8,832 nt of DNA from CAVPRW01 sp046727435 [NCBI: bacterium] (GTDB taxonomy: Bacteria; Tectomicrobia; Entotheonellia; J063): the NCBI GenBank assembly GCA_046727435.1, contig JBKPCR010000491.1:1-8832 (forward strand), in the 5' to 3' direction. Numbering within the stretch: the first letter of the stretch is position 1; every line of letters begins with the position of its first letter. Below are positions 4,393-8,832 of this stretch, piece after piece. A program made the position numbers and the translations under genes. Below the pieces are notes generated by a model. It had not been told where the DNA came from. It was given only the letters and a program-made list of their open reading frames with translations, and made no database searches.

Positions 4393-5376
4393 TTAGCCCG
4401 GGAAAAAGCAGGCGCTGTCATGGCCACCTGGCACCTTCTCCAGAGGAGGCTCCTGTTCCTGACAGATCTGTTGGGCTTTTGGACAGCGCGGGTGGAACAT
4501 GCACCCGCTCGGCAAGTTGTATGGGCTTGGCACTATACCCGGGATCTCCATCAGCCGCTGCTTCTGGCCGGTGGCCTTCTCCTCGAGGCGCGGCAACGAT
4601 TGCAGCAGGCCTTGGGTATACGGATGCTGCGGTTGTTTGAAGATCTCCAGAACGGGTCCTTCCTCCACCACTTTGCCGCAGTACATGACGACGACGCGCC
4701 GGGCCGATTCGGCCACCACCCCGAGGTTGTGGGTGATGAGGATGATGGCCATGCCGAGCTGTTCTTTCAGGCCGAACATGAGATCGAGAATCTGGGCCTG
4801 AATAGTGACGTCGAGGGCCGTGGTCGGCTCGTCGGCCAGCAGGATCTTGGGATTACACGACAGCGCCATGGCGATCATGGCGCGCTGGCGCATGCCGCCG
4901 CTGAGCTGGTGGGGATACTCGTGCACACGGCGTTCAGGGGCCGGAATGCCCACCTTCTGCAGCATCTCGATGGATTTCGCGAGCGCATCACGTTTGCTGA
5001 GGCCCTGATGCAGGATGATGGCTTCGGAAATCTGATTGCCGATGGTGAAGACAGGGTTCAAGGATGTCATCGGCTCTTGGAAGATCATCGAGATTTCATT
5101 GCCGCGGATGCGCCGCATCTCAGCGCGCGTGAGTTTGAGAAGATTGGTGCCCTCGAAGATGATCTCGCCACCCACGGTACGCCCCGGGGGATCAGGGACC
5201 AGGCGCAGAATGGAGAGCGCCGTCACGCTTTTCCCACAGCCGGATTCACCGACAACCCCCAGCGTCTCGCCGCGACGTAGTTGATAGCTCACCCCATCAA
5301 CGGCCTTGGCGACCCCATCAGAAGTAAAGAAGGAGGTCCTGAGGTCACGCAGGTCAAGCAATACATCATTGTTCAT
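4393..5376 (-). CDS. dppD: Peptide ABC transporter ATP-binding protein, DppD/OppD type
   Basis: A 327-residue ATPase, partner of the DppF-like protein encoded 36 bases downstream. Motifs: Walker [10 protein letters not shown] (43-51), Q-loop [11 protein letters not shown] (98-108), signature [15 protein letters not shown] (158-172), Walker B ILLADE with PTTALDVT (178-191), and H-loop His216. The LSGGMRQR signature and EPTTALD box mark the D subunit. The C-terminal extension carries C292, C298, C305 and C323 with the CMFHPRCP core, the predicted [4Fe-4S] ligand set of Opp/Dpp ATPases. The ATG at 5376-5374 is preceded by AAAGG at 5386-5390 with a 9-base spacer. Normally dppA/B/C genes would stand upstream in the same operon. 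Here the upstream side is a long stretch without permease genes, so the substrate-binding and membrane subunits must be elsewhere or were lost locally. Confidence 0.93.
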
Positions 5377-5479: not shown

Positions 5480-5783
5480 GGCTTTCTCTCGCACTGGCTC
5501 GTACTGCAGCGAGAAACGGATGGGGGTGAGGGGCGATTACCACACCGAGTTTGCTGTTTCTGCTCTGAGGTGCACAGTGATGCAAGCGAGGAGCGTGGCA
5601 ACCATGAAGCTGCTCAATATCACAGCAGAAAAGGGGCCAGGTCTGCTCCCCAGTCTCTTCCAGGTGAAGCCCAGAGATCATAATGGCTCCCATGAGCCCG
5701 CCTGAATCATACCACACCCCCATCCGACATGCCAAGCCGCGTCGCGCGCCTCGGGCTCTATGCGCTCCCGTCGATTTGACCAT
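5454..5783 (-). CDS. Possible small hypothetical protein, Cys/His-rich
   Basis: An ORF of 109 codons on the same strand as the dppD-like gene and ending 77 bases before it. The ATG at 5783-5781 has AGGAG at 5789-5793 with a 5-base spacer, which is the main argument for it. A second in-frame ATG lies five codons further upstream at 5798, within that Shine-Dalgarno region. The product has a basic N-terminus, no clear signal peptide or membrane segment, and a Cys/His-rich middle (FCCDIEQLHGCHAPRLHHC) that could bind metal. Its third-base GC content is near even, unlike the clearly coding neighbours, and I recognise no family. It may be a chance open frame; if real, it could be the first gene of the dpp transcript. 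Confidence 0.22.
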   Translation of the reverse strand: MVKSTGAHRARGARRGLACRMGVWYDSGGLMGAIMISGLHLEETGEQTWPLFCCDIEQLHGCHAPRLHHCAPQSRNSKLGVVIAPHPHPFLAAVRASARESLVTDDEIC

Positions 5784-6343: not shown

Positions 6344-7699
6344 ATGGCCTATCTAGTTGTCCCTCATGAAGTTTCAGCGAGCACGGCGACGATCTGGATC
6401 GGCGCCATCGACGAGCGCTTCGTCCCGGGTCAAGTCCGCCTTGTCTCGCATCTGGGCGAACATACCCTGGCCGCTGCTTGGGAGCATTGGGTTGCTCGAG
6501 AAGGGACGCACCACCTCGACTACCAGCGTGTGACTATCACGGGGCTGCAACCGCGTACCCCCATGACGGTGCAACTCCTCGTCAACGGACAGCCCCAAGC
6601 CGATGCTAGGCTCACCACGCTGCCGCCACAACTGCCGACGCTTGAGGAGAAACCTTTTACTGTGCTGTTGGGCTCCTGTTTTTGCAAACGGGAGGACGAC
6701 GAGGGTGCCGTGGGCCGGACGTATGCCCAGCTACCTGCCGGCTCGCGCCCTGACGTGAAAATTTTGTGCGGTGACCAAGTGTACCTCGATGATCCGTGGG
6801 CACATTACCTCTGGCATACGCATGATATCCCGGACCTGGAGGTGGAATTTTTCCGCAATTATCGCGATACGTGGATGCAGGAGCCGGGGTTTCGGCAACT
6901 GCTAACGCAGGGAGCGAACTATTTTTCCCCCGACGATCACGAATACTGGAATAATGCGCCCGATGCCGCGACGGTCATTCGTGATACCTGGTCGAGGAGC
7001 GGTCGCCAGGAGTGGTTCACCACCGCGCGCCAGTTCTACCAGATGTTCCAGAATCCTGCCCCCATCGCGACGTTTACCGTGGACCCGCTGTCGTTTCTCA
7101 TCGCCGACACGCGGTCGAACCGCAGCTCTAACCAAACGGATTTCATGCAGCAGACTGACTTTCAGGCCGTGGCACAGTGGATTCAGAACTTGCCGGGCCC
7201 CGGAGTTCTCGTCATCGGGCAGCCACTCTTCAGCGAAAAAGCTGGCCGCCTGTTCGGGACCTTCGGCGACTGGAATTTGCCGGACTATAACCAATATGCT
7301 CAGCTCGCCCGACTGCTCGTACAGTCGCCCCATTCGATCGTCATCCTCACTGGCGATGTGCATTATGGTCGCATCGCCTGGTGTACTCTCATCTCCGGAG
7401 GTGAGCTGATTGAAGTCATCTCCTCGCCGATGTCGCTGGTCGATAAAAAAGCTGAAGGTTCCTGGGAAGAGGCGCCCAACCTGTTCCCGCCTTTGGTCCT
7501 TCCGGGGGTGGCCAGGGCCCAGGTGCACACACTTGAGGAAGAGACGTTTTCACCCATCACCAGCCATTTTCTGACGTTGGAGTTTGCGGCCACCGGCGCC
7601 CATGTCCGCATGACCGTGAGGCTCTGGCCTGTAGGCCGACAGGGGTCTAGCCTAGGTGCAGGCTTTGGAGAGACGGTTTACCAACGACTCTTACACTAG
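6344..7699 (+). CDS. PhoD-like metallophosphatase, apparently cytoplasmic
   Basis: A 451-residue protein of the PhoD/alkaline phosphatase D family, metal-dependent phosphodi-/monoesterases. Residues about 4-95 form a beta-rich domain like the PhoD N-terminal Fn3-like module (SASTATIWIGAIDE...; ITGLQPRTPMTVQLLV). The catalytic domain follows, with family motifs in order: GSC (110-112), CGDQVYLDD (142-150), DDHEYWNN (197-204), ADTRS (254-258) and TGDVHYG (336-342). The Asp, Cys and His residues expected to bind metal are all present. Unlike B. subtilis PhoD, it starts directly with the Fn3-like domain and has no Tat or Sec signal, so it is probably cytosolic and the substrate unlikely to be extracellular phosphate esters. 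The ATG at 6344 has GGAGG at 6333-6337 with a 6-base spacer. A partner gene starts 10 bases after its stop codon. Confidence 0.88.
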   Translation: MAYLVVPHEVSASTATIWIGAIDERFVPGQVRLVSHLGEHTLAAAWEHWVAREGTHHLDYQRVTITGLQPRTPMTVQLLVNGQPQADARLTTLPPQLPTLEEKPFTVLLGSCFCKREDDEGAVGRTYAQLPAGSRPDVKILCGDQVYLDDPWAHYLWHTHDIPDLEVEFFRNYRDTWMQEPGFRQLLTQGANYFSPDDHEYWNNAPDAATVIRDTWSRSGRQEWFTTARQFYQMFQNPAPIATFTVDPLSFLIADTRSNRSSNQTDFMQQTDFQAVAQWIQNLPGPGVLVIGQPLFSEKAGRLFGTFGDWNLPDYNQYAQLARLLVQSPHSIVILTGDVHYGRIAWCTLISGGELIEVISSPMSLVDKKAEGSWEEAPNLFPPLVLPGVARAQVHTLEEETFSPITSHFLTLEFAATGAHVRMTVRLWPVGRQGSSLGAGFGETVYQRLLH

Positions 7700-7709
7700 G
7701 AGGGCATCA

Positions 7710-8462
7710 ATGCTCGCGATACGGCACTCACAGGCAATGGCACCGAACGCATCCTTGCGCGATGTGCCCGCGCAGCGGCGTGAATCCAATCGTGCATGGC
7801 TAGGACGCCTGGGGTCTACAAGTGGCATTCTCCTGTTAGGGGGTAGCTCCCTGGCACACTTCCGCATCCGGGTGGCCCAATCACATGTCCGAAGCGACCT
7901 GTTACCCAGTTTCTGGTCGTTAGTTGGCATCCTTGAGGACGGCCAAAACTTTGCCTCGGTGCCACTCGATGGGAGTACGGACCCGTCCGATGTGCCGCGC
8001 ACCAATGGGGTTCGGACCTGCCGGCTGGAGGAGTATGACGATCCTGTGCGGTTTCCCAACATCGCCGTACTTCATTTTACGGATGATGAGCGCCCTATAC
8101 GCCAGAATATCGATCGGGTCAAATCCCAACGGAGTGTGATCGATCTCCCGACGTTGATGCTCCCATGGCTAGGGTACATCTGGAGCGTCGGTCAGGCGGC
8201 AAACCCCCTGCTCGGGGGACAAGGGCTCCCCAGTGCGGCATTCGTCGAAACGGTGTATGGCATTGCCGGTATCGAGCTGACACCCGGTTTATCATCGGCC
8301 TCGAGTTGTCCGGAAGCGATCTGGGCCGCAGCCAAGTGGTGGCATCAGTTCTATGGAGCGGAGACAGACATAGGGGACGAAGCCCATGCGGTCGCACGCA
8401 TGCCCACCGGCCATTTTGCGGTTCGGCAGCCCGCCGCCGCCGTGGCCGAGCGCAATCGGTAA
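7710..8462 (+). CDS. Hypothetical protein, partner of the PhoD-like gene; possible inactive permuted papain-fold protein
   Basis: A 250-residue protein whose family I do not recognise by name. The ATG at 7710 has AGGAGG at 7698-7703 with a 6-base spacer, and the gene starts 10 bases after phoD stops, so the two are co-transcribed. No convincing signal peptide or membrane helix; the first 30 residues look disordered. The core (about 38-215) reads like a folded enzyme domain: ILLLGGSSLAHFRIR, SFWSLVGILEDGQ (68-80), YDDPVRFPNIAVLHF (109-123) and PSAAFVETVYGIAGIELTPG (174-193), then SSCPEAIWAAAKWW (198-211). The order matches circularly permuted papain-fold (YiiX-like) proteins, in which a His in an HVGI motif precedes a Cys in CSELVxxAY. 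Here those positions read Leu71 and Ser175, so such an enzyme would be inactive. That fold assignment is inference. An earlier in-frame ATG at 7656 lies inside phoD and is not needed. Confidence 0.75.
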   Translation: MLAIRHSQAMAPNASLRDVPAQRRESNRAWLGRLGSTSGILLLGGSSLAHFRIRVAQSHVRSDLLPSFWSLVGILEDGQNFASVPLDGSTDPSDVPRTNGVRTCRLEEYDDPVRFPNIAVLHFTDDERPIRQNIDRVKSQRSVIDLPTLMLPWLGYIWSVGQAANPLLGGQGLPSAAFVETVYGIAGIELTPGLSSASSCPEAIWAAAKWWHQFYGAETDIGDEAHAVARMPTGHFAVRQPAAAVAERNR

Positions 8463-8645
8463 TCGGCGGGTGGAAACGCAAGCGGTAATATGCCGCCATT
8501 TCGCTTTGCGAACACCTCAATGAACATTTTCAGTGTCCAAGACAGCAGGTGTGGGAAGTAGTGACTCTCAATGAGGTACACTATCTTGAAGCCCTGGTGC
8601 CGTGAAGGTTGTCACCCCTGGCCTGCTACCAACTCGTCGCATTCC
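8463..8645. other. Intergenic stretch after the phoD unit
   Basis: No gene is supported here. CGCAAGCGG (8477-8485) can pair with CCGC (8493-8496) and TTGCG (8506-8510) around a 9-base bulge, a possible 3'-end structure for the phoD transcript. It has no T-run, so it is not a standard intrinsic terminator. A start-less open frame (8489-8605) follows and is discussed among the findings. Confidence 0.45.
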
Positions 8646-8674
8646 TTGACGCCACGTCTGGCATTTGCTATGAT
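8646..8674 (+). promoter_or_regulatory. Sigma70-type promoter with extended -10
   Basis: TTGACG (8646-8651) and TATGAT (8669-8674) each match five of six consensus bases and are exactly 17 bases apart. TGC directly before the -10 (8666-8668) gives an extended -10 as well. Transcription should start near 8681, some 146 bases before the ATG at 8827. This is the best promoter in the window. Confidence 0.75.
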
Positions 8675-8680
8675 ACGAGC

Positions 8681-8767
8681 GTTGTAGGTCAGGTGCCAGC
8701 AGTGCAAGATCCTTGTGAGACATCAAGGAACCGCAACGGCGATACCAGGGCTGGTTGCGGTTTTTTT
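8681..8767 (+). ncRNA. Structured leader RNA (attenuator/riboswitch candidate) or small RNA
   Basis: Starting at the predicted transcription start, this segment of about 87 bases holds a hairpin TCCTTG/CAAGGA (8710-8715 with 8724-8729) that directly abuts an intrinsic terminator. GCCAGC (8695-8700) could instead pair with GCTGGT (8750-8755), which reaches into the right arm of the terminator and would act as a weak antiterminator. I do not recognise a known riboswitch consensus, and the only frame across it runs through the terminator without a run of one amino-acid codon, which argues against a leader peptide. Premature termination would yield a short RNA; read-through would express the gene at 8827. 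Confidence 0.45.
8729..8767 (+). terminator. Intrinsic terminator inside the 5' leader
   Basis: AACCGCAAC (8729-8737) pairs over nine bases with GTTGCGGTT (8754-8762) across a 16-base loop, and a run of seven T (8761-8767) follows. Within the loop ACCA/TGGT can pair as an alternative. It lies between the promoter at 8646-8674 and the start codon at 8827, so it is positioned to limit expression of the next gene and not to end an upstream one. Confidence 0.8.
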
Positions 8768-8826
8768 ATGACCGTTCGATCATGCGCCGCGGCTTTCTTT
8801 TAATCCCAGGTCAGGAGGATTTAGCC

Positions 8827-8832
8827 ATGGCC
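8827..8832 (+). CDS. Start of an unidentified gene, cut by the window edge
   Basis: Only ATG GCC (Met-Ala) is visible. The start is supported by AGGAGG at 8813-8818 with an 8-base spacer and by the promoter and leader upstream. Nothing can be said about the product. Its expression is probably controlled by the leader terminator at 8729-8767. Confidence 0.65.

What the first reader, a model, noticed from the sequence alone, without database searches (positions are those of the whole stretch)
8646..8832. Strong promoter followed by hairpin and intrinsic terminator ahead of the next gene
The promoter has an extended -10, and about 50-80 bases after the predicted start lie a hairpin and a nine-pair terminator with seven T. 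GCCAGC at 8695-8700 can compete with part of the terminator. This is the layout of a riboswitch or attenuator, but I could not match a known class.
Basis: partly seen in the sequence, partly recalled or inferred. Interest (0 to 1): 0.6.

Follow-up and report, generated by a model that had tools for sequence, protein, structure and literature searches.

The report
Promoter with early stop before gene
A strong bacterial promoter is followed within about 90 bases by a well-formed stop signal for transcription and then by the start of a gene, a common layout for a control leader or a small RNA, and nothing found here shows that it is a new kind.

Summary
The core observation holds. A sigma-70-type promoter with extended -10 (8646-8674) is followed by a 9-pair intrinsic terminator (8729-8762) with seven T (8761-8767), then a Shine-Dalgarno sequence and ATG at 8827. 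Such a terminator occurs in 0 of 1000 shuffled windows. The hairpin before it (8710-8729) is ordinary. A better competitor exists on paper: the presumed RNA 5' end (8681-8689) can pair with the terminator's 5' arm (8730-8737). It depends on the exact start site and on transcript length, so it is only suggestive. Rfam gives nothing at gathering scores. No genome is held for the window, no close relative was reached, and only six bases of the frame from ATG 8827 lie inside the window, so conservation and covariation, the deciding tests, could not be run. Most likely this is an attenuator leader, trigger unknown; an independent small RNA gene of about 87 nt is the main rival. An ordinary layout and an unproven candidate: low interest.

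The parts
8646..8674 (+). sigma-70-type promoter, TTGACG - 17 - TATGAT, TG extension of the -10
8681..8681 (+). inferred transcription start, G, 7 bases after the -10; not measured
   Evidence: inference from spacing; sequence
8681..8689 (+). GUUGUAGGU, possible antiterminator strand pairing with 8730-8737 (8 pairs, one bulge)
   Evidence: seen in folds; tested; suggestive only, depends on the start site
8710..8729 (+). hairpin TCCTTG / CAAGGA, 6 pairs, loop of 8
   Evidence: energy ordinary
8729..8767 (+). intrinsic terminator: 9-pair stem 8729-8737/8754-8762, loop 16, T7 at 8761-8767
8786..8832 (+). possible hairpin that covers the Shine-Dalgarno and ATG
   Evidence: (z -1.57, 17 of 200 shuffles as good): not beyond chance
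8813..8829 (+). Shine-Dalgarno AGGAGG (8813-8818) and ATG (8827) of the next gene; 6 bases of this frame lie in the window
   Evidence: start codon inferred; an in-frame ATG at 8782 is also open

Best explanation
A 5' leader of the gene at 8827 with a transcription attenuator. RNA polymerase starts near 8681 at a strong promoter and many transcripts stop at 8761-8767. Under some condition the terminator is prevented from forming and transcription continues into the gene. Shown: the promoter consensus, the terminator, the order of elements, and the lack of a good second sigma-70 site. Inferred: that transcription starts there, that the gene depends on read-through, and that the stop is regulated. 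The trigger (ligand, protein, ribosome on a short ORF, or RNA) is unknown. The most concrete switch on paper is pairing of 8681-8689 with the terminator's 5' arm 8730-8737, which would hold the terminator open.
For: Promoter and terminator are well beyond chance. The best sigma-70 match between promoter and ATG is only 8 of 12. The 5' arm is 91% paired in the transcript 8681-8738; 17 of 1500 shuffles, 7 of 400 in a repeat and 3 of 1007 other real stretches of the window reach that. With the pairing forced, the fold of 8681-8767 (-21.2) lies 6.2 kcal/mol above the terminator fold (-27.4).
Against: The 5'-end pairing was found after the fact. As a plain duplex it is reached by 392 of 5000 dinucleotide and 585 of 5000 mononucleotide shuffles of 8681-8709, by 279 of 5000 shuffles of 8681-8728, and by 645 of 8803 29-base stretches of the window. 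The energy of the 8681-8738 fold is ordinary (313 of 1500 shuffles as low). The arm's pairing is at chance if transcription starts at 8682 or 8683 (204 and 177 of 400 shuffles as good), weaker for 8679 (54 of 400), and fades as the RNA grows (start 8681: 31 of 400 at 8744, 176 of 400 at 8750); with hairpin 1 kept, 26 of 800 shuffles reach it. In the transcript 8681-8753 its probability is 0.0. With the terminator pairs penalised, the best fold (-21.7) is a different one. The leader outside the terminator folds no better than shuffles; the whole leader has z -1.37 (8681-8776) and -1.72 (8681-8832). Rfam: no hit at gathering score. No conservation evidence could be gathered.
Confidence: 0.5

Rival explanations
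1. An independent small RNA gene of about 87 nt (8681-8767) with its own promoter and terminator; the gene at 8827 has another, non-consensus promoter.
For: Promoter, hairpin and terminator make a complete sRNA unit. RNA fragments made by premature termination in 5' UTRs that act as sRNA regulators are documented in E. coli (PMC7815308, passages), so the two readings can both be true.
Against: No Rfam family reaches its cut-off; the one match in the low-threshold scan is isrK, 14.3 bits against a cut-off of 50, E 0.97. The ATG at 8827 lies 59 bases after the T run, with no good sigma-70 site between.
Confidence: 0.3
2. Ribosome-dependent attenuation: translation of a short frame (GTG 8693 to stop 8803, 36 codons plus stop, through the terminator) opens the terminator and couples translation to read-through.
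For: The frame exists and runs through the terminator to 8803, ten bases before the Shine-Dalgarno sequence. Attenuation governed by an upstream ORF is known (PMC12218461, abstract and section list).
Against: Weak start (GTG, poor Shine-Dalgarno by eye), no run of one amino acid longer than three, no Pfam match for the longer frame 8609-8803 that contains it, no relatives to test codon conservation.
Confidence: 0.08
3. A plain leaky terminator: a fixed, unregulated reduction of transcription, or residue of a rearrangement, with no switch.
For: Outside the terminator the leader folds like shuffled sequence.
Against: The strong promoter just upstream is hard to explain as residue, but not impossible.
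Confidence: 0.12

Closest known systems
Terminator-type attenuator leaders and riboswitches (general layout)
   Same: Promoter, short leader, intrinsic terminator, then a gene start with a Shine-Dalgarno sequence; a possible competing helix that uses the terminator's 5' arm
   Different: No match to any Rfam family at gathering score; no ligand, no conservation evidence
Terminated 5' UTR sRNAs of E. coli (PMC7815308, passages seen)
   Same: Short RNA ending in the 5' UTR of a gene, as inferred here
   Different: No target and no expression data here
Upstream-ORF attenuation of a DUF1127 gene in Sinorhizobium meliloti (PMC12218461, abstract and section list seen)
   Same: A short frame and a premature stop lie before the gene
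   Different: No evidence that the short frame here is translated; no relation of sequence was tested
isrK sRNA (RF01394)
   Same: The one match in the low-threshold scan of 8440-8832
   Different: 14.3 bits against a cut-off of 50, E 0.97: chance level

Membership tests
Known Rfam riboswitch, leader or sRNA families | Covariance-model score at or above the family's gathering score | tested here: not met
   0 matches in the whole window; low-threshold scan of 8440-8832 gave one match, isrK at E 0.97
Transcription attenuator (by layout) | Intrinsic terminator between promoter and start codon of the gene | tested here: met
   the gene's start codon and the transcription start are inferred
Transcription attenuator (by layout) | Mutually exclusive antiterminator helix | tested here: inconclusive
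   8681-8689:8730-8737; 17 of 1500 shuffles, but start-site and length dependent and unremarkable as a duplex
Riboswitch | Conserved, covarying aptamer in front of related genes | not testable with these tools
   no genome held, no close relative reached, gene outside the window
Independent sRNA gene | Stable separate transcript, and a separate promoter for the next gene | not testable with these tools
   no expression data; no good sigma-70 site in 8675-8826, other promoter types not examined

The most novel reading that the evidence does not exclude
An undescribed riboswitch-like element: a three-way junction closed by the RNA's own first nine bases (8681-8689) paired to the terminator's 5' arm (8730-8737), enclosing two hairpins, so that stabilising the junction keeps the terminator open and turns the gene on.
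Probability: 0.1. Interest if true: 0.5.

Novelty: new member of a known kind. Interest (0 to 1): 0.2.

Why it matters
If it is a regulated leader without an Rfam match, it adds one more candidate orphan leader, in an organism with no close relative found here. By itself it opens no new question; such layouts are usually ordinary attenuators or small RNAs (my general knowledge, not a count made here).

Tried and rejected
GCCAGC as antiterminator: rejected. Amino-acid attenuator with a long run of one codon: rejected by reading the short frames. A PyrR-like loop, thought of from memory: not among the matches of the low-threshold Rfam scan. The hairpin over the Shine-Dalgarno and ATG: z -1.57 for 47 nt and -0.16 for 65 nt, so not counted. 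Leader and flank (8440-8832) in plasmids: no match; in phages: 4 records, all Shigella phages, E 0.4, 38 bases outside the leader. An exact 18-base pattern of the hairpin in viral contigs: 0. Leader DNA (8640-8832) in 395 genomes of the nearest reachable phylum: 6 of 395 have a match at E 0.01 or better, pieces of 20-37 bases, where about 4 are expected by chance; one of the 6 loci was read (L089, first 2000 of 3037 bases).

Search for relatives. FtsX in genome contigs: none. FtsE, PhoD-like and the 268-aa frame in viral contigs: none. PhoD-like in plasmids: 1 record, Roseibium, 35.4% over 58% of the query. FtsX over genomes reached through those loci: 12 of 17 at E 0.001; 110 of 148 at E 0.001, best identity 39%; 2 of 2 at E 1e-55; 1 of 119 (34% identity) and 0 of 52 at E 1e-50. 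FtsX family model: 20 of 20 match, 8 of 20 over its cut-off, 11 of 14 control genomes match. FtsE: 55 of 59 at E 1e-40, best 58%, paralogous ABC ATPases included. PhoD-like: 0 of 36. I gave these of the 80 loci as genome handles, 17 and the rest. The organism stays unidentified. These empty answers say little about conservation of the leader, since no close relative was among the genomes.

A fold ('no-term', -11.6) evidently kept the terminator bases from pairing at all, and is not used; one search gives the figure with only the terminator pairs penalised (-21.7).

Full report
What is there. The sequence 8640-8832 holds a sigma-70-type promoter TTGACG-17-TATGAT with a TG extension (8646-8674), then a leader, a 9-pair stem AACCGCAAC (8729-8737) / GTTGCGGTT (8754-8762) with a 16-base loop, seven T (8761-8767), a Shine-Dalgarno AGGAGG (8813-8818) and an ATG at 8827. 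The window ends six bases into that frame. The expected start of transcription is G8681, seven bases after the -10; this is inferred, not measured.

Is it more than chance? On both strands of the window there are two extended -10 promoters with at least 10 of 12 matches, this one and one on the minus strand at 5735-5706. Shuffled windows have 0.023 on average (1000 shuffles), and 6 of 3000 shuffles of the intergenic region 8463-8826 have one on the plus strand. A stem of 9 Watson-Crick pairs with T7 occurs at one place in the window, in 0 of 1000 shuffled windows and in 0 of 3000 shuffled intergenic regions. The terminator folds with z -4.19. The looser stock scan has 7 promoter-like sites against 2.7 expected and 6 terminator-like sites against 7.0, and does not list this terminator because of its loop length. 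The other parts are ordinary: 8681-8730 z -0.10, 8768-8832 z -0.16, 8786-8832 z -1.57; the whole leader has z -1.37 to 8776 and -1.72 to 8832. Consensus matches are not proof of function.

The competitor. The best duplex of 8681-8709 with 8738-8762 is reached by 4616 of 5000 dinucleotide shuffles. A better competitor turned up in the folding of growing transcripts. GUUGUAGGU (8681-8689) pairs with ACCGCAAC (8730-8737), eight pairs and one bulge, closing a three-way junction over a weak hairpin at 8693-8705 and the hairpin at 8710-8729. In the transcript 8681-8738 the 5' arm is 91% paired; 17 of 1500 shuffles, 7 of 400 in a repeat, and 3 of 1007 other stretches of the window do as well. Forced, it costs 6.2 kcal/mol against the terminator fold.

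Against it. It was found after the fact. As a plain duplex it is reached by 392 of 5000 shuffles of 8681-8709, 279 of 5000 shuffles of 8681-8728 and 645 of 8803 29-base stretches of the window. The fold energy of 8681-8738 is ordinary (313 of 1500 shuffles as low). With the second hairpin kept, 26 of 800 shuffles reach the arm's pairing. It holds for starts at 8680 (10 of 400) and 8681 (7 of 400), is weaker for 8679 (54 of 400), and is gone for 8682 and 8683 (204 and 177 of 400). For start 8681 it fades as the RNA grows, to 31 of 400 at 8744 and 176 of 400 at 8750; the helix has probability 0.0 in 8681-8753. With the terminator pairs penalised, the best fold is a different one at -21.7. I call it suggestive only.

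Family searches. Rfam has no match in the window at gathering scores, and one match, isrK at E 0.97, in the low-threshold scan of 8440-8832. No tRNA or tmRNA was found.

Neighbourhood. On the minus strand lie the start of a protein that I call CtpA-like (name recalled; it was not scanned against a family library, but it matches, over 57 residues, the frame after envC in locus L081), an EnvC-like M23 peptidase (below NCBIfam's EnvC cut-off), FtsX and FtsE (both over their NCBIfam cut-offs), and two dipeptide/oligopeptide ABC ATPases. On the plus strand lie a PhoD-like protein (E 2.8e-05, 23.8 bits, below Pfam's cut-off of 27) and a 268-aa frame without Pfam or NCBIfam match. Between that frame's end (8462) and 8827 there are 364 bases. 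No sigma-70 site better than 8 of 12 lies between the promoter and the ATG, so read-through is the simplest way to express the gene; promoters of other types are not excluded.

Relatives. No genome is held for the window. FtsX found nothing in genome contigs. The best FtsX match reached was 39% (110 of 148 genomes match) and the best FtsE match 58%, in a phylum reached through genomes labelled Deltaproteobacteria. The organism is thus unidentified. My guess from memory was Nitrospirota; no call tested it, since no record of that name was among the loci. Leader DNA in 395 genomes of the nearest reachable phylum gave 6 with short matches at chance level. Covariation could not be tested.

Literature. 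Two paper searches were answered; the ten papers shown of 197 hold no mention of Nitrospira. Passages of PMC7815308 report many 3' ends in E. coli 5' UTRs and coding regions, which its authors propose are mostly regulatory, some giving functional sRNAs. The abstract of PMC12218461 (with its section list) describes attenuation through an upstream ORF. Passages of PMC10043782 say that thousands of riboswitch classes may remain unfound and that intrinsic terminators are commonly used in expression platforms. So the layout is familiar, and a lack of an Rfam match is not in itself remarkable. I made no search aimed at whether this very element is in print.

Verdict. A promoter and a terminator, both well beyond chance by sequence, in front of a gene start. 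Most likely it is an attenuator leader, with an independent sRNA gene as the main rival, the two not excluding each other. The element cannot be classified from a single sequence.

Noticed in passing
5706-5735, minus strand: A second extended -10 promoter (TTGGCA-18-TATGAT) upstream of the dipeptide ABC ATPase gene (4393-5376).
   Followed up: no
8670-8699, minus strand: A weaker promoter-like site (9 of 12, no TG) overlapping the plus-strand -10, as in divergent overlapping promoters.
   Followed up: no
8686-8693 and 8808-8815: The eight bases AGGTCAGG occur near the RNA's 5' end and again at the Shine-Dalgarno sequence; TGACC at 8769-8773 could pair with either. Probably chance.
   Followed up: partly
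8755-8832: The frame of ATG 8827 is open back to TTG 8755, with another ATG at 8782, so the gene could begin closer to the terminator.
   Followed up: partly
7656-8462: A 268-aa frame overlapping the end of the PhoD-like gene, without Pfam or NCBIfam match and with no relative found in viral contigs.
   Followed up: partly
8738-8748: GGCGATACCAG in the terminator loop equals, as far as I recall, the first bases of the artificial theophylline aptamer; the other half is missing, so taken as coincidence. No call tested it.
   Followed up: no
   Followed up: partly
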